Positions 26,617 through 30,995 of a DNA stretch of 35,425 nt are shown in pieces. The notes beneath the pieces were generated by a model that searched no databases, was not told the origin of the DNA, and worked only from the letters and a program-made list of their open reading frames with translations. The position numbers and the translations under genes are program-made. This DNA comes from a virus. The stretch spans positions 1 to 35,425 of the IMG/VR virus record IMGVR_UViG_3300021962_000318. The stretch is one strand, 5' to 3'. The stretch's first letter is position 1; every line of letters starts with the position of its first letter.

Positions 26617-26620
26617 TTGG

Positions 26621-26691
26621 AGCGGGCAGAGAGAATCGAACTCTCGTCATCAGCTTGGAAGGCTGGGGTTCTACCATTAAACTATGCCCGC
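26621..26691 (-). tRNA. tRNA-Gly (anticodon TCC)
   Basis: This is a 71-base cloverleaf on the minus strand. The acceptor stem is GCGGGCA/TGCCCGC, the anticodon loop CTTCCAA reads TCC, and the T-arm has GAGAG-TTCGATT-CTCTC. The discriminator is T, and 3' CCA is not encoded. It is the leftmost member of the array and ends 5 bases from the acyl carrier protein stop. Confidence 0.9.
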
Positions 26692-26696
26692 TAATA

Positions 26697-26933
26697 TTAT
26701 TTTTGCATTTCTGCTGTGATATGGTCTTCCAAATCACCTAGTGTGTTCATTTTATCCAAAGCTTCATCTGGAATAGAGACATCAAATTCTTCTTCCAGAA
26801 AAACCAAATATTCCATAAAACTCATACTATCAAAGCCTAATCCTTCATTTCTAAAGATAGTTTCTCTTGTCATGTCTGAACTGTCAATTTCAAATTTATC
26901 TTTCAGTACATTTTTCATTCTCTCTAAAACCAT
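26697..26933 (-). CDS. Acyl carrier protein
   Basis: This is a 78-residue acidic, all-helical protein of normal ACP length. The phosphopantetheine site is GFDSMSF with Ser36, at the start of helix II, followed by the acidic recognition helix (EYLVFLEEEFDVSIPDEALD). AGGAG lies before the ATG. It sits between two tRNA genes, with no fatty-acid or polyketide enzyme in the window. In a phage it must depend on host holo-ACP synthase to be active. It could supply or divert acyl groups for lipid, lipid A or other acylation; which one cannot be read. The ACP call itself is secure. Confidence 0.88.
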   Translation of the reverse strand: MVLERMKNVLKDKFEIDSSDMTRETIFRNEGLGFDSMSFMEYLVFLEEEFDVSIPDEALDKMNTLGDLEDHITAEMQK

Positions 26934-26961
26934 AATAAACTCCTATCATATTTTACCGTGG

Positions 26962-27041
26962 TGCTGGAGGTGAGACTCGAACTCACGTAGGTTTCCCGAC
27001 GCCTTACAAGAGCGTTGCAATTGCCGCTATGCGACTCCAGC
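26962..27041 (-). tRNA. tRNA-Thr (anticodon TGT), class II-like body
   Basis: This is an 80-base tRNA on the minus strand. The acceptor is GCTGGAG/CTCCAGC and the anticodon stem ACGCT/GGCGT holds loop CTTGTAA, which reads TGT (Thr). The T-arm is GTGAG-TTCGAGT-CTCAC. The D-stem has only 3 pairs (GCA/TGC) and the variable region is 12 bases long with a small hairpin, as in Leu/Ser/Tyr tRNAs rather than Thr. The identity is thus less certain than for the others. Confidence 0.75.
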
Positions 27042-27052
27042 CAATAATTTGG

Positions 27053-27123
27053 AGCGGGATAACAGAATCGAACTGATGTCTAAACCTTGGCAAGGTTTCG
27101 TTCTACCATTAAACTAATCCCGC
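27053..27123 (-). tRNA. tRNA-Gly (anticodon GCC)
   Basis: This is a 71-base cloverleaf on the minus strand. The acceptor is GCGGGAT/ATCCCGC, the anticodon stem AAACC/GGTTT has loop TTGCCAA reading GCC, and the T-arm is TCAG-TTCGATT-CTG(T). The D-arm (AGTTTAATGGTAGAAC) is nearly identical to that of tRNA-Gly(TCC), so the two probably share origin. A consensus promoter lies directly upstream at 27133-27161. Confidence 0.88.
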
Positions 27124-27132
27124 AATAACTAT

Positions 27133-27161
27133 ATTATATATTAATTCTTTTTTTATGTCAA
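27133..27161 (-). promoter_or_regulatory. Consensus sigma70 promoter, TTGACA-N17-TATAAT
   Basis: On the minus strand TTGACA (27156-27161), 17 bases and TATAAT (27133-27138) form a full-consensus host promoter. It starts transcription about 10 bases before tRNA-Gly(GCC) and reads toward tRNA-Thr, the ACP gene and tRNA-Gly(TCC). Confidence 0.75.
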
Positions 27162-27170
27162 CCTAATTGG

Positions 27171-27263
27171 TACCCCCACCAGGATTCGAACCTGGACCAT
27201 CCGCTAATCTGGCGGCATAAGCTGAGGTATAAGCTCAGAGTTCTACCATTAAACTATGGGGGC
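27171..27263 (-). tRNA. tRNA-Ile-like (anticodon TAT) with a 26-base variable region
   Basis: This is a 93-base tRNA-like gene on the minus strand. The acceptor is GCCCCCA/TGGGGGT, the D-arm is like the Gly tRNAs, and the anticodon stem CTGAG/CTCAG has loop CTTATAC, reading TAT (Ile, AUA). A 26-base insert containing a second hairpin (CCGC/GCGG, loop CAGATTA) lies before a normal T-arm (CCAGG-TTCGAAT-CCTGG). Such an arm is not normal for Ile. It may be a functional odd tRNA or a decaying one. Confidence 0.65.
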
Positions 27264-27271
27264 ATATTTGG

Positions 27272-27352
27272 TGCGAGAGGAGGGATTCGAACCCTCAAGC
27301 CTTGCGGCGGCAGATTTTAAGTCTGCTATGTATACCGTTCCATCACTCTCGC
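27272..27352 (-). tRNA. tRNA-Leu (anticodon TAA)
   Basis: This is an 81-base class II tRNA on the minus strand. The acceptor is GCGAGAG/CTCTCGC, the anticodon stem GCAGA/TCTGC has loop CTTAAAA reading TAA, there is a normal long variable arm, and the T-arm is GAGGG-TTCGAAT-CCCTC. A near-consensus promoter lies directly upstream at 27361-27389. Confidence 0.9.
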
Positions 27353-27360
27353 ATAATATT

Positions 27361-27389
27361 ATTATAACATAGAATTCACATATTGTAAA
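27361..27389 (-). promoter_or_regulatory. Near-consensus sigma70 promoter, TTTACA-N17-TATAAT
   Basis: On the minus strand TTTACA (27384-27389), 17 bases and TATAAT (27361-27366) lie between tRNA-Arg and tRNA-Leu. It would start about where tRNA-Leu begins, giving this part of the array its own early start. Confidence 0.65.
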
Positions 27390-27392
27390 TGG

Positions 27393-27464
27393 TCCGGCGT
27401 ACAGGAATCGAACCTGTATTGACGGCTTAGAAGGCCGCTGTATTATCCATTATACTAACGCCAG
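27393..27464 (-). tRNA. tRNA-Arg (anticodon TCT)
   Basis: This is a 72-base cloverleaf on the minus strand. The acceptor is CTGGCGT/ACGCCGG (one T-G pair), the anticodon stem GCGGC/GCCGT has loop CTTCTAA reading TCT (AGA codons), and the T-arm is ACAGG-TTCGATT-CCTGT. AGA is a common Arg codon in this AT-rich phage. Confidence 0.88.
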
Positions 27465-27466
27465 AA

Positions 27467-27474
27467 TATAAATA
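27467..27474 (+). promoter_or_regulatory. Possible late octamer TATAAATA directly before a start codon
   Basis: A perfect TATAAATA on the plus strand ends 5 bases before the ATG at 27480. If used, transcription would begin at or near the start codon and give a leaderless message. It may equally be chance in AT-rich DNA; no good ribosome site is seen for that gene, which would fit the first reading. Confidence 0.35.
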
Positions 27475-27479
27475 AAATT

Positions 27480-27683
27480 ATGAACAAAAAACAAATTTCG
27501 GAATATATTTTAAACCACCTGAAAGATAAAAGCAAGAACTTTAATTCCAGTGGAGAAAGACTTGCATATCAATTGGGTTTTGTGGTTTCAGTTTTAACTG
27601 AAATATGTGAAAAAAATTATGATGCTTTTTCTTTGGTTAAAAAGAAATTAAATAAGGATGAAATTAATCCACCACACTCATAA
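27480..27683 (+). CDS. Small hypothetical protein on the opposite strand
   Basis: This is a 67-residue protein. The sequence (MNKKQISEYILNHLKDKSKN, then RLAYQLGFVVSVLTEICEKN) looks like a real small helical protein, with balanced composition. It is the only plus-strand gene in the tRNA region and converges on the YkuK-like gene, overlapping its end by 20 bases. There is no clear ribosome site; a late octamer lies directly before the ATG. I recognise no family. Confidence 0.5.
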   Translation: MNKKQISEYILNHLKDKSKNFNSSGERLAYQLGFVVSVLTEICEKNYDAFSLVKKKLNKDEINPPHS

Positions 27684-28140
27684 CATGTTTTAACCTATCC
27701 GCAGCATATGAAGCCGCAAAAGCTTTTGGTTTGATCATTGGTGTGATATTACATGTTCCTTTGATGTATCCTATTGCCTGCTGCACAACACAAGATGATC
27801 CATATTTTGTGTCTGGATTAATGTCCAGGTGTACCTCAACATGTCTATTTTCCAATACATCAATAAGGTCTTGAAATAAATTGGCGACTTTATAGACTTC
27901 ATTCATCAACCTCAATGCAGGTTTATTTTTCTTTTGGTCATGGTCCAATTCTCTATGTGATTCTCCAAATATTTTACAACCATGGCGTCCATCAATATGA
28001 ACAACAACAGCCAAAGTGTAATCTGCATACCATTTTCCGTCAATGAAAAGTCTTTCAGAATCAGCACCAAGATAAATTTTTGTTTCTACTGATTGTGAGT
28101 TTATGAAATTTTTGACTTCTTCTAAATCCAATTTAAACAA
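27664..28140 (-). CDS. RNase H-fold protein, YkuK-like (DUF458)
   Basis: This is a 158-residue protein starting at TTG (28140), which has AAAGG at the right distance and a stop codon in frame just before it. The pattern YLGADSERL (Asp27), the long strand TLAVVVHIDGRHGCKI, and VEVHLDINPDTKYGSS match YkuK-type predicted RNase H-fold proteins with acidic metal ligands. The activity of this family is not settled to my knowledge. It is placed between tRNA genes, so RNA handling is plausible, but that is inference. Confidence 0.7.
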   Translation of the reverse strand: MFKLDLEEVKNFINSQSVETKIYLGADSERLFIDGKWYADYTLAVVVHIDGRHGCKIFGESHRELDHDQKKNKPALRLMNEVYKVANLFQDLIDVLENRHVEVHLDINPDTKYGSSCVVQQAIGYIKGTCNITPMIKPKAFAASYAADRLKHVMSVVD

Positions 28141-28143
28141 AAT

Positions 28144-28344
28144 TTATCCTTTATAATAAAATGCTCTGACGCACTGCGGTGGTACTATAGTATCTCCAGC
28201 ATGCATACCTTCAACGATACCTTCCATCCACTTCTCGACCAGTGCCGCTCTCGTGTTGCCAACGCCAGTTTGGTTAGACTAGAACCACCCGTGGTAGTCA
28301 CTCCACTTCTCTTCCTGCGGGTCACAGTAGCCATTGTTCTACAT
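28144..28344 (-). pseudogene. GC-rich reading frame with two in-frame TAG codons, possible gene remnant
   Basis: This stretch between the YkuK-like gene and tRNA-Pro is clearly richer in G+C than its surroundings. One minus-strand frame reads NNGYCDPQEEKWSDYHGWF, then TAG (28279-28281), then SNQTGVGNTRAALVEKWMEG and on to QCVRAFYYKG before TAA at 28144-28146. A TAG also follows an ATG at 28342-28344. The peptide pattern looks coding and ends exactly at the ribosome site of the next gene. TAG is used as a normal stop elsewhere (25283-25285), so decay is likelier than recoding. It could instead be a structured RNA. Confidence 0.35.
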
Positions 28345-28358
28345 GGCAGGGCCGATGG

Positions 28359-28434
28359 TCTCCAGTGTGGGATTCGAACTCACATTATTCCTCGTCCCAA
28401 ACGAGGTGCCATAACCAGGTTAGGCGAACCGGAG
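28359..28434 (-). tRNA. tRNA-Pro (anticodon TGG), CCA encoded
   Basis: This is a 76-base tRNA on the minus strand, with CCA encoded at 28356-28358. The acceptor is CTCCGGT/ACTGGAG (one G-T pair), the anticodon stem CCTCG/CGAGG has loop TTTGGGA reading TGG, and the T-arm is GTGAG-TTCGAAT-CCCAC with one mismatch. Together with tRNA-Asn it is one of two genes in the array with encoded CCA, which suggests a separate, more recent origin. Confidence 0.8.
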
Positions 28435-28503
28435 AGTAAACTGTCTAACATATTCTTCTACCACAGGTAGAATTTCTGCTTTGTATTTGCTGTGCATATT
28501 TGG

Positions 28504-28576
28504 CTCCCCGACCTGGGTTCGAACCAGGGACCTGCGGATTAACAGTCCGTCGCTCTACCGACTGAGCTATCAGGGA
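28504..28576 (-). tRNA. tRNA-Asn (anticodon GTT), CCA encoded
   Basis: This is a 73-base cloverleaf on the minus strand, with CCA at 28501-28503. The acceptor is TCCCTGA/TCGGGGA (one T-G pair), loop CTGTTAA reads GTT, the T-arm is CCTGG-TTCGAAC-CCAGG, and the D-arm AGCTCAGTCGGTAGAGC is standard bacterial. A promoter lies directly upstream at 28588-28615. Confidence 0.93.
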
Positions 28577-28587
28577 ACAATTTAGTT

Positions 28588-28615
28588 ATTATACAATATC
28601 CAAAAATAAAGTCAA
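28588..28615 (-). promoter_or_regulatory. Sigma70-type promoter, TTGACT-N16-TATAAT
   Basis: On the minus strand TTGACT (28610-28615), 16 bases and TATAAT (28588-28593) lie between the terminator at 28648 and tRNA-Asn. It would start the tRNA-Asn/tRNA-Pro transcript. Confidence 0.65.
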
Positions 28616-28642
28616 TATGTTTGTTGTATTTAAACAACAAAT

Positions 28643-28665
28643 AAAAAACCCAACTGATGTTGGGT
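28643..28665 (-). terminator. Intrinsic terminator after the SprT-like gene
   Basis: On the minus strand a stem ACCCAAC/GTTGGGT with a 4-base loop is followed by a run of T (28643-28648). It lies directly after the stop of the SprT-like gene and before the tRNA promoter, so it separates the two transcription units. Confidence 0.75.
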
Positions 28666-28668
28666 CAT

Positions 28669-29190
28669 TTAAGAAATTTTATTTGTTTTTTTCCATTTTA
28701 TTGGTACTGATACTATTGGTAAACTTGGATTTTTAAAATCATCAAAAACATTCCATAACATTTCATGTGTTACGAATTTTGTCAATAATCCAGTTTCTCT
28801 ACCGTGAGCATCAATTTCCCAAGGATGTTCCCAATAATCAATCTTGTTTAAGTTAACACTTTTTCCTTTCCAGGAAGCTAAAGTGTCATCAGTTTCTTTA
28901 TAAATGAATTGTTTTATGTGAACCATTTCGTGAGCTAATGTTTCTAGTATTCTTCTAGCTCCTATTCCTGGGTGAATCTCTATTAAAAATTCTCTTGGTT
29001 CTTTCCTAGTATTATAATCCTCTACACTAGCATATCCATATTCTTCCAAGGTTTTTACAAATTTTATTGTTGTGAAACAGTTGTTTCTTATCCTAGTATT
29101 TTTTATCAATTCTTTAGAGTAAAAGTTAGCTGCCCTCTCAATAAAAGGTTTGAAGTTCGTGTCCGGACAGTTAACTATTTTTATTTTCAT
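28669..29190 (-). CDS. SprT-like zinc metalloprotease domain protein
   Basis: This is a 173-residue protein. HEMVH at 87-91 is the zinc-binding HExxH motif, followed by KQFIYKE and, about 40 residues later, HPWEIDAHGRE, which can supply the third ligand. This layout matches SprT-like/Spartan-type proteases and phage relatives. An AGGAG ribosome site precedes the ATG. DNA-protein crosslink or host-protein cleavage are possible roles by analogy only. An intrinsic terminator follows directly. Confidence 0.75.
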   Translation of the reverse strand: MKIKIVNCPDTNFKPFIERAANFYSKELIKNTRIRNNCFTTIKFVKTLEEYGYASVEDYNTRKEPREFLIEIHPGIGARRILETLAHEMVHIKQFIYKETDDTLASWKGKSVNLNKIDYWEHPWEIDAHGRETGLLTKFVTHEMLWNVFDDFKNPSLPIVSVPIKWKKTNKIS

Positions 29191-29253
29191 TTATCTCCTA
29201 GGCATCCACTACTCCACTTTTATTTAGAATTAACCGGATTTCATATTGTGAAA

Positions 29254-29682
29254 TTATATCTTTTGAATTTTTACCCCCGCCTTTTCCAAGAATTGTATGC
29301 CATCTTCGTTACGATAACTGTTCCGATAAAAAACGGAATTGATACCAGACTGATATACCAATTTTGCACAGTCCAAACAAGGGGCATGAGTGACAAAAAG
29401 AGTAGCGCCGAGGCCAGATTCTGTAGATTTTGCCAACTTAGCGATTGCATTTGTTTCAGCATGTAGTACCTCAGGTTTAGTTTTTAATTGTGTTGTATCG
29501 TCACTATATTGAATTAAATCTTCACAATTATTATCCCAACCAGATGGCATTCCGTTGTATCCAATAGAAATAATACGATCATCTTTTACGATGATTGCAC
29601 CGACATGTAACCTGTTCGCATATGACAATTCCGCAAAAGTTTCTGCGGTTTTCATATATGCATTTATAAATTTTTGTTTCAT
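29254..29682 (-). CDS. cd: Deoxycytidylate (dCMP) deaminase
   Basis: The ATG at 29682 is chosen; a GTG six codons earlier falls inside the tRNA-Met gene. The 142-residue protein has the zinc deaminase motifs HAET (His74, Glu76) and PCLDC (Cys102, Cys105) and resembles T4 Cd. It converts dCMP to dUMP, feeding dTMP synthesis for an AT-rich phage genome. It lies directly after tRNA-Met on the same strand, so both may come from one transcript. Confidence 0.9.
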   Translation of the reverse strand: MKQKFINAYMKTAETFAELSYANRLHVGAIIVKDDRIISIGYNGMPSGWDNNCEDLIQYSDDTTQLKTKPEVLHAETNAIAKLAKSTESGLGATLFVTHAPCLDCAKLVYQSGINSVFYRNSYRNEDGIQFLEKAGVKIQKI

Positions 29683-29691
29683 AAAAAATGG

Positions 29692-29764
<73 letters not shown>

Positions 29765-30030: not shown

Positions 30031-30474
30031 TTAATCCTTTTTTTCCTTGATTGAAATTTTCTTAATCAGGTCTTGACTTTTCAGAGGATTTTGCAACCAA
30101 ATTTTCAACATACCGTTGGTCAATTCGGCATCCTTAATTTCAATTTTATCCGCCAATTTAAATTCGCGGTTGAAATTTCTATTGGCAATACCTTTGTGTA
30201 AGAAAGTTCCCTCCTCGATGGTTGATTCCTTCACAGAACCTTTAACAATCAGATTATTACCCTCTAAGGTAATATCAATGTCAGATTTTGAAAAGCCAGA
30301 AACGGCCAATTCAATAACATAATTATTTTCATCAATTTGCCGAATGTTGTAGGGAGGATATCCGCCGATGTGTTTGTTTTCAACCATTTCCTGTAAATCT
30401 TTGAAAACGGTATCAAAACCAACAACAAAGGGGTTCAATTTATTTAAATTGAAAGAGTGAGTAAGATAAGTCAT
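30031..30474 (-). CDS. Small heat-shock protein, Hsp20 family
   Basis: This is a 147-residue protein. The alpha-crystallin domain runs from about residue 42 to 135, with YNIRQIDENNYVIELAVSGF and the conserved GILxIxLP-type end here read as GMLKIWLQNPL. It prevents aggregation of unfolded proteins, probably during virion protein overproduction. Hsp20 genes are frequent in T4-like phages of aquatic bacteria. AAGGAG precedes the ATG. The 125-base leader upstream has a strong RNA structure, described separately, and the gene ends in its own terminator, so it is a single-gene unit or the end of the RegA unit. Confidence 0.9.
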   Translation of the reverse strand: MTYLTHSFNLNKLNPFVVGFDTVFKDLQEMVENKHIGGYPPYNIRQIDENNYVIELAVSGFSKSDIDITLEGNNLIVKGSVKESTIEEGTFLHKGIANRNFNREFKLADKIEIKDAELTNGMLKIWLQNPLKSQDLIKKISIKEKKD

Positions 30475-30507
30475 ATTTTCTCCTTAAAAAGCGAGTTATT
30501 AAAAATT

Positions 30508-30582
30508 GCCAACCCATATGGCGTTGGCCCGAGGAATTCATAGCCAGCCTGACCTCGGACTGCTGGTTCCCATCCCGATGGG
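30508..30582 (-). ncRNA. Structured, pseudoknot-capable leader upstream of hsp20
   Basis: This is a GC-rich island in AT-rich DNA. Hairpins: GCCAAC/GTTGGC (30508-30528) and CCCAT/ATGGG (30569-30582). Between them CCGAGG (30529-30534) pairs with CCTCGG (30553-30558), while AGCCAGC (30542-30548) pairs with GCTGGTT (30562-30568). These two helices interleave as in an H-type pseudoknot. On the minus strand the last hairpin is followed by AATTTTT and then the hsp20 ribosome site. It may be a regulatory leader or a separate small RNA. The strand is chosen because it precedes hsp20. Confidence 0.5.
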
Positions 30583-30599
30583 ACTAGGACATTTATTTA

Positions 30600-30995
30600 T
30601 TATTTTTTCCCAATATTATATTTTGGCACCAATTGCCATTCATTTTTTTCTTTATGGGAAATTATTTTTATTTGTGAAAGAAAAATGGGTTCTGGTACTT
30701 TGGTTTGTTCTTTGTTTACCACTTTTAATAGTCCCCAGTCCTCCAATAAATTCACAATAGCGTTTCTTCTGGATAAATCATTTTCAGTAATGTCTGTCGG
30801 TTTTCCATCCAAAGCAAACAATTCTTTAAAATGAACTATGTAATACAAACCACGTTTATGCAATATGTGGCATGATTGGTATAGTGTTTTTTCTTTTTTG
30901 GATGCGACACCAATTCTGGTTAATGTTTCACGAATTTTTAAAAAATCGTCTTGTTCATTTAATGAAATTTCTATTAAGTCTTTAACATCAATCAT
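30600..30995 (-). CDS. regA: RegA, translational repressor of early mRNAs
   Basis: This is a 131-residue protein. Segments TRIGVASKKEKTLYQSCHIL, KRGLYYIVHFKEL and the C-terminal EWQLVPKYNIGKK match T4 RegA closely. RegA binds ribosome sites of many early messages and blocks translation, and it interacts with the replication proteins. The start overlaps the gp62 stop by ATGA, as in the T4 order 45-44-62-regA. Unlike T4, gene 43 does not follow; hsp20 does. Confidence 0.92.
   Translation of the reverse strand: MIDVKDLIEISLNEQDDFLKIRETLTRIGVASKKEKTLYQSCHILHKRGLYYIVHFKELFALDGKPTDITENDLSRRNAIVNLLEDWGLLKVVNKEQTKVPEPIFLSQIKIISHKEKNEWQLVPKYNIGKK

What the first reader, a model, noticed from the sequence alone, without database searches (positions are those of the whole stretch)
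30508..30582. Pseudoknot-capable GC-rich leader before hsp20
Two hairpins flank two interleaved helices (CCGAGG/CCTCGG and AGCCAGC/GCTGGTT). On the minus strand the last hairpin is followed by AATTTTT and then the hsp20 ribosome site, the order expected of an aptamer with an attenuator. For a heat-shock gene a temperature sensor is another option. It does not resemble any riboswitch I can recall.
Basis: partly seen in the sequence, partly recalled or inferred. Interest (0 to 1): 0.55.

Follow-up and report, generated by a model that had tools for sequence, protein, structure and literature searches.

The report
Phage hsp20 RNA thermometer plus pseudoknot
The start of this phage's heat-shock message folds into a hairpin, a knotted RNA and then what looks like a bacterial-style RNA thermometer able to hide the ribosome site when cold, and versions of that thermometer sit before the same gene in many other phages.

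Summary
The structures are real. On the minus (mRNA) strand, 30508-30583 holds a 5' hairpin, an H-type pseudoknot and a bulged-G hairpin (hpI), stacked nearly end to end before hsp20. Relatives keep the pseudoknot with 12 different stem-1 and 16 different stem-2 arm pairs, and a fixed 12-sequence alignment shows double changes in both helices.

hpI plus the next 28 nt (30480-30507) form a two-hairpin ROSE-type RNA thermometer: CUCGCUU pairs with the ribosome site AAGGAG around one bulged G, the ROSE U(U/C)GCU signature. A covariance model built without the window finds this core at the hsp20 start in the window, in 8 of 8 isolate genomes searched whole and in 10 of 10 further isolate stretches. 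Rfam ROSE_3 finds it at hsp20 in 10 of 18 records, always under its cut-off, and not in the window.

Best reading: a heat-opened translational switch of ROSE type, preceded in this lineage by a modular 5' structural cap. The attenuator/riboswitch reading is poorly supported. Phage Hsp20 also keeps the arginine by which IbpA represses its own leader. Function is inferred; nothing was tested at the bench.

The parts
30594..30601 (-). AATAAATA, resembles the T4 late promoter TATAAATA (consensus recalled); ends 10 nt before the 5' hairpin and overlaps the end of regA
   Evidence: position; in relatives the 5' hairpin lies 5-9 nt after TAAATA in 22 of the 25 distinct upstream stretches that have TAAATA and no -10-like hexamer
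30568..30583 (-). 5' hairpin UCCCAU-CGGG-AUGGGA, at or near the likely mRNA 5' end
   Evidence: exact sequence (with one more G in front) in 114 viral stretches
30562..30566 (-). pseudoknot stem 1, 5' arm CCAGC
30553..30558 (-). pseudoknot stem 2, 5' arm CCGAGG
30544..30548 (-). pseudoknot stem 1, 3' arm GCUGG
30529..30534 (-). pseudoknot stem 2, 3' arm CCUCGG, abuts hairpin I with no spacer
30508..30528 (-). ROSE hairpin I: GCCAAC-G-CC-AUAU-GG-GUUGGC with bulged G at 30522
   Evidence: 51-sequence alignment: 96.6% of cells paired, 128 double-change cells, bulged G invariant; R1 55.3 bits over 30472-30531
30496..30507 (-).
   Evidence: U run not conserved
30480..30495 (-). ROSE hairpin II: CUC-G-CUU / UUU / AAGGAG, hides the Shine-Dalgarno AAGGAG (30480-30485); bulged G at 30492
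   Evidence: 143 of 143 regex-selected leaders can pair all five SD positions; window
30031..30474 (-). hsp20 gene, 147 aa, with Arg99 at the place of IbpA Arg93
   Evidence: PF00011 E 7.3e-17, phrog_432; Arg
30600..30995 (-). regA translational repressor, gene upstream
   Evidence: PF01818 E 3.7e-49

Best explanation
[quoted passage not shown] Its 3' part (hpI plus a second hairpin outside the finding's coordinates) is a short ROSE-type RNA thermometer: at low temperature CUCGCUU pairs with the ribosome site AAGGAG around one bulged G; warming, or a factor that opens this weak hairpin, frees the site and Hsp20 is made. hpI stays folded. Its 5' part (hairpin plus H-type pseudoknot, abutting hpI) is a structural cap that probably keeps the mRNA 5' end double-stranded, against 5'-end-dependent decay, and insulates the thermometer from misfolding. 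Shown by sequence comparison: the pseudoknot, hpI, the ability of the ribosome site to pair, and recurrence of the core at hsp20 starts in many phages. Inferred: the temperature response (by homology to Pseudomonas ibpA) and the function of the cap.
For: Core: U(U/C)GCU against the SD plus a stable GC-rich hpI is the two-hairpin architecture of Pseudomonas ibpA thermometers (PMC3669281; abstract and the sections on melting and conservation read). Rfam ROSE_3 matches at the hsp20 start in 10 of 18 records, best 34.1 bits, E 1.6e-6 in phage Melnitz-3. R1, built from 51 uncultured-phage leaders without the window, finds the window (55.3 bits) and its best hit in each record lies at hsp20 in 18 of 18 (some of the ten uncultured records share leaders with the training set, the eight isolates do not), then in 10 of 10 further isolate stretches. 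R1 also gives 19.7 bits (E 0.0053) before an IbpB-like gene in enterobacterial-type DNA (L235). hpI covariation. Core regex: 78 of 80 hsp20 loci, 0 hits in the same sequence reversed (3.03 Mb, both strands); R1 finds the two missed. hpII predicted stability -6.4 kcal/mol at 5 C, -3.8 at 25 C, -1.1 at 45 C; predicted SD openness 0.04 to 0.22 between 5 and 45 C (computed on L001, whose leader is identical), against 0.01 to 0.15 for a Pseudomonas-type ibpA leader, L232. Cap: pseudoknot; leader begins within 10 nt of a promoter-like element in 67 of 80 distinct stretches.
Against: No ROSE_3 match reaches the gathering score (0 of 18), the window has none even at E 10, and 14 of 14 control genomes give some match at E 10. 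R1 did not hit the Pseudomonas-type leader L232 at E 10. Predicted SD openness rises only slowly with temperature; over 143 leaders it averages 0.17 to 0.26 against 0.27 to 0.39 for shuffled upstream sequence; L030 is predicted mostly open and L236 half open at all temperatures. A full-length fold of the window leader pairs the SD differently, with the coding region at 4-37 C. hpII arms hardly vary, so hpII has little covariation of its own. In Pseudomonas, constructs without hpI still responded to temperature, so hpI is not essential there. No expression or probing data exist for the phage.
Confidence: 0.72

Rival explanations
1. Self-repression: phage Hsp20 binds its own leader (hpI/hpII, perhaps helped by the pseudoknot) and blocks translation until unfolded proteins titrate it away, as E. 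coli IbpA does. The ROSE shape would then be mainly a protein-binding site and aggregation sensor rather than a pure thermometer. Could act together with the thermometer.
For: IbpA Arg93, reported as irreplaceable for mRNA binding and absent from IbpB (PMC10474464, abstract and introduction read), is Arg in 12 of 12 aligned phage Hsp20s including the window and, read by eye from the printed stretch, in 10 of 10 further phages; the IbpB-like control has Gln. hpI keeps an invariant bulged G followed by C, and CC/GG in 47 of 51, more than a passive stem needs.
Against: The arginine may be kept for the structure of this class of small heat-shock proteins; no unrelated small heat-shock proteins were aligned as a control. 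No RNA-binding data for phage Hsp20. I did not find in what I read which part of ibpA mRNA IbpA binds.
Confidence: 0.35
2. Riboswitch with attenuator: the pseudoknot is an aptamer, hpI plus AAUUUUU a terminator.
For: hpI is followed by a U run in the window and by a run of 5 or more in 55 of 143 leaders; the alternative 'ACCUUAGG' domain in relatives has strongly conserved letters, as aptamers do.
Against: Pseudoknot loops and stems keep no common sequence; T run shorter than 5 in 88 of 143; hpI present without a recognised upstream domain in 44 of 80; no riboswitch family reached gathering in the window or in 20 of the 80 loci; a below-cut-off preQ1-II match (E 6.2) rests on the SD region.
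Confidence: 0.08
3. hpI plus U run is simply the end of the regA transcript, and hsp20 is expressed from a promoter inside or after it.
For: Position just after regA; GC-rich hairpin then AATTTTT.
Against: Promoter-like sites lie upstream of the hairpins, so the hairpins are probably inside the hsp20 leader; the same hpI precedes hsp20 where regA is not annotated as the neighbour (Melnitz-3, P-SSM4, HTVC008M).
Confidence: 0.06

Closest known systems
Short ROSE-like RNA thermometers of Pseudomonas ibpA (PMC3669281; Rfam ROSE_3, RF02523)
   Same: Upstream of a small heat-shock gene; two hairpins; GC-rich hpI with AUGCC...GGGU core in the Rfam consensus; U(U/C)GCU pairing the SD with an unpaired G
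   Different: Scores below the Rfam cut-off; in a phage; preceded here by a 5' hairpin and a pseudoknot
Self-regulated ibpA leader of E. coli bound by IbpA (PMC10474464)
   Same: Small heat-shock gene, ROSE leader, key arginine in the protein
   Different: No binding shown for the phage protein
Phage lambda cIII thermosensor (PMC4166951, passages read)
   Same: An RNA thermometer encoded by a phage
   Different: cIII switches between two folds and is accessible when cool; this would be an SD hairpin of the ROSE kind, open when warm
manA and wcaG RNA motifs of cyanophages (PMC2864571, passages read)
   Same: Structured leaders in T4-like phages; manA also noted before ibpA chaperones
   Different: Neither family reached gathering in the window or in 20 of the 80 hsp20 loci

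Membership tests
ROSE thermometers (short, ROSE_3 type) | lies in the 5' UTR of a small heat-shock gene | tested here: met
   hsp20 by PF00011 and phrog_432; SD ends 5 nt before the ATG
ROSE thermometers (short, ROSE_3 type) | U(U/C)GCU opposite the SD in the 3' hairpin, with an unpaired G | tested here: met
   CUCGCUU/AAGGAG at 30480-30495; 143 of 143 leaders (the regex itself required YYGCT and AGGAG, but not that the first Y be T, opposite A, nor the pyrimidine before it)
ROSE thermometers (short, ROSE_3 type) | stable hairpin I upstream | tested here: met
   30508-30528; covariation in 51 relatives
ROSE thermometers (short, ROSE_3 type) | Rfam ROSE_3 gathering score | tested here: not met
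   0 of 18 records over the cut-off; window no match at E 10; 24.7 bits against 43 in L030
ROSE thermometers (short, ROSE_3 type) | translation rises with temperature through melting of hairpin II | not testable with these tools
   only predicted energies, which change little
riboswitch | conserved ligand-binding core | tested here: not met
   for the pseudoknot: structure kept, sequence not, 12 S1 and 16 S2 arm pairs after merging length variants; not tested for the larger domain of relatives
riboswitch | terminator with competing antiterminator | tested here: inconclusive
   U run of 5 or more in 55 of 143; no antiterminator was sought systematically
manA / wcaG RNA | covariance model match | tested here: not met
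   no match at gathering in the window or in 20 loci, nor at E 10 in the window leader or the L012 leader
H-type pseudoknot | two crossing helices with compensatory change | tested here: met
   12-sequence alignment, both crossing helices 100% paired; over all three helices 27 double-change cells, all in the two crossing ones; slid controls 37-51%

The most novel reading that the evidence does not exclude
Tailed phages of very different hosts share a ROSE-type leader on hsp20 that reads heat and, through the Arg93-type contact, the amount of free Hsp20; in one uncultured T4-like lineage it is topped by a modular 5' RNA cap (hairpin, pseudoknot and/or a second unknown structured domain) whose sequence is replaced wholesale while its architecture is kept, as expected if the cap shields phage mRNA from host nucleases.
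Probability: 0.27. Interest if true: 0.8.

Novelty: new variant of a known kind. Interest (0 to 1): 0.62.

Why it matters
ROSE thermosensing is described for bacterial small heat-shock genes; here the same kind of switch appears on a phage gene said to be carried by over 90% of T4-like cyanophages (statement in PMC10665884, passage read). If it works, phage chaperone output is tuned by water temperature or by folding stress inside the dying cell, which can be tested in laboratory-grown cyanophages and pelagiphages. The pseudoknot cap adds a modular mRNA 5' element for which I found no match in Rfam. I found no report of a ROSE element in a phage in the paper searches (listings of open-licence PMC papers only); the S-CREM1 genome paper lists wcaG, manA and glnA RNAs but the word ROSE does not occur in its text (PMC9964418).

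Tried and rejected
Rejected or unhelpful: Rfam at gathering on the window gave only tRNAs; low-threshold hits in the leader (KRAS_3UTR, CRISPR-DR37, preQ1-II, nse_sRNA, DUF2800, ZFAT-AS1_2) are far below their cut-offs. A DNA similarity search of the leader in phage isolates gave no record covering 80% of it, so the pseudoknot version is known here from uncultured phages only. manA and wcaG were suspected for the leader or the second domain and not found. I first guessed that the 5' hairpin marked late genes in general; of 84 distinct contexts, 82 show a regA-like end upstream or hsp20 or the 74-aa ORF downstream, judged from the printed residues, and two (L110, L188) do not. I called that 74-aa ORF phasin-like in my notes; Pfam gives it no significant hit (rows L083 and L120), so the name is dropped. 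The plain MFE fold is uninformative.

Rows dropped before counts: A1 took 51 of the 57 chosen cores; L091, L100, L136, L178, L189 and L199 were left out because the regex had caught another register or a longer stretch. For the pseudoknot, 92 modules were reduced by identical starts; 19 gave no pseudoknot, 51 were scored, of which 12 of an AGGU/UAGG class and 3 low-scoring rows were dropped and 36 kept, from 33 loci (L091, L100 and L178 came in twice). One search counted 14 stem-1 and 19 stem-2 arm pairs; merging length variants leaves 12 and 16, some differing by one base. True arms pair fully by construction of that search; in the same call, arms exchanged between modules still paired in 70.9% (stem 1) and 44.7% (stem 2) of positions. 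The weight lies in the shuffles and in the fixed alignment. A2 took 22 of the 25 domain stretches listed (L102, L136, L189 left out). The isolates were picked by me from the 60 listed of 502 hits: eight phages seen before the model was built, ten afterwards; two unverified records with bacterial-type ibpA (L232, L235) served as bacterial comparison, not as phages.

Full report
Setting. The window is a 35 kb fragment of a T4-like phage (clamp, clamp loader, regA, family B polymerase). The family-assigned genes around the finding are on the minus strand in the order clamp, clamp loader, regA, leader, hsp20. The finding lies wholly between regA (ends at 30600) and hsp20 (starts at 30474).

What is there. 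Read as mRNA: a promoter-like AATAAATA (30594-30601), ten bases, a 5' hairpin (30568-30583), one base, stem 1 of a pseudoknot (CCAGC 30562-30566 with GCUGG 30544-30548) crossing stem 2 (CCGAGG 30553-30558 with CCUCGG 30529-30534), then with no spacer hairpin I (30508-30528, bulged G 30522), a 12-nt AU spacer with the U run, and hairpin II (30480-30495) whose 3' arm is the Shine-Dalgarno sequence. Hairpin II was not in the finding. Alone, the window's pseudoknot is unlikely but not impossible by chance: 13 of 3000 shuffles and 2 of 5444 39-nt stretches of the window do as well.

Relatives. Hsp20 brought in 80 uncultured-virus loci. By regex, 78 of 80 carry hairpin I plus the hairpin II motif before hsp20; the two missed are found by the covariance model. 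Upstream of the core, 44 of 80 have no recognised domain, 15 the 5' hairpin plus pseudoknot, 13 these plus a larger domain, 2 the 5' hairpin plus the larger domain, 4 the larger domain without a recognised 5' hairpin, and 2 were not scored. A scan for the exact 5' hairpin gave 114 stretches. In all loci held then it occurs 138 times in 84 distinct contexts; 82 show a regA-like end upstream or hsp20 or a 74-aa ORF downstream. So, as far as this exact hairpin shows, the cap belongs to this locus.

Pseudoknot test. Of the modules between 5' hairpin and hairpin I, 36 rows of pseudoknot class (33 loci) were kept; in 35 of 36 none of 40 shuffles scored as high, in one (L177) one did. After merging length variants they hold 12 stem-1 and 16 stem-2 arm pairs, some differing by one base. 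In a 12-sequence alignment that includes the window, both crossing helices are 100% paired and hold 27 double-change cells; sliding the partners drops pairing over all three helices from 98.6% to 37-51%. The 5' hairpin itself does not covary there. Loop 3 is 64% A (114 of 178 letters), usual for H-type pseudoknots (recalled). I see no loop or stem sequence common to all of them. That speaks for a structural role and against a ligand pocket; this step is inference.

Thermometer core. Hairpin I in 51 aligned relatives (window left out): 96.6% of cells paired, 128 double-change cells, slid controls 30-49%, bulged G and following C invariant. Hairpin II: in 143 of 143 distinct leaders caught by the regex (nine from named records) all five SD positions can pair; the anti-SD is CTCGCT in 118, CTTGCT in 22, TTTGCT in 2, TTCGCT in 1, with 43 different loops. 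This is the ROSE motif U(U/C)GCU. The Rfam ROSE_3 model finds the core at the hsp20 start in 10 of 18 records searched whole, and any other match in those records is weaker; none passes the cut-off, and the window, like seven other records, gives no match at hsp20. My model R1 has its best hit at hsp20 in 18 of 18 records, including 8 isolates not used to build it (weakest HTVC008M, 17.4 bits, E 0.044; Phosso 21.3 bits, E 0.013), and in 10 of 10 further isolate stretches of about 1.2 kb, one of them from HTVC115P, a 54.8 kb Pelagibacter phage not classed in Kyanoviridae in its record. R1 also hits the leader of an IbpB-like gene in L235 (19.7 bits) but not the Pseudomonas-type leader L232.

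How it would work. Krajewski and colleagues (PMC3669281, abstract and two result sections read) showed for Pseudomonas ibpA that hairpin II melts on warming while hairpin I stays closed, and that disrupting four pairs of hairpin I in P. aeruginosa opened the switch; constructs with hairpin II alone still responded to temperature. The phage core has the same parts. Predicted hairpin II energy in the window goes from -6.4 kcal/mol at 5 C to -1.1 at 45 C, and predicted SD openness rises from 0.04 to 0.22, similar to the Pseudomonas-type leader; but the predicted change is shallow, L030 is predicted mostly open and L236 half open throughout, and the full-length fold pairs the SD otherwise. The thermometer is therefore argued from homology and motif, not from folding energies.

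A second input. E. coli IbpA represses its own leader and needs Arg93 (PMC10474464, abstract and introduction). The matching residue is Arg in 12 of 12 phage proteins aligned (Arg99 in the window), Gln in an IbpB-like protein, and Arg, read by eye, in 10 of 10 others. This fits self-repression but could be structural; no unrelated small heat-shock proteins were compared.

The cap. The 5' hairpin starts within 10 nt of a -10-like hexamer (45) or of TAAATA (22) in 67 of 80 distinct upstream stretches; ten had one further away and three had neither. In core-only loci hairpin I itself takes that place, within 5 nt of such an element in 24 of 28 distinct stretches. No transcript start was measured. 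A transcript with hardly any free 5' end is the expected design against 5'-end-dependent decay (general knowledge); this is the least certain part.

Verdict. The attenuator reading is weak. The element is best described as a phage ROSE-type thermometer with a pseudoknotted 5' cap: a new variant of a known kind.

Noticed in passing
L185:3519-3598, L027:2368-2451 and 20 more in A2; most of loci L194-L228: A second, larger structured RNA domain with invariant ACCUUAGG and GUAA letters and two hairpins with double changes stands in place of, or after, the pseudoknot between the 5' hairpin and the ROSE core. No Rfam family reached gathering in the loci scanned. It looks more aptamer-like than the pseudoknot.
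   Followed up: partly
L113, L114 leaders: A third type of module (AGAAGUCCCUUGAAU...) replaces the pseudoknot before the larger domain.
   Followed up: no
L083:7723-7944, L120:7630-7851: A 74-aa ORF without a significant Pfam hit follows this leader directly in some phages, so the ROSE core would control it too.
   Followed up: partly
window 26618-29764: Nine tRNA genes on the minus strand, downstream of hsp20.
   Followed up: no
L244 and L246 (S-PM2, Sf-CH1b) before hsp20: By eye, other hairpins, unlike the one here, stand upstream of the ROSE core, suggesting further cap types in cyanophages.
   Followed up: no
L235, L232: Two unverified phage records (MG065691, OQ572409) carry ibpA genes of bacterial type; probably bacterial DNA in the assemblies.
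   Followed up: partly
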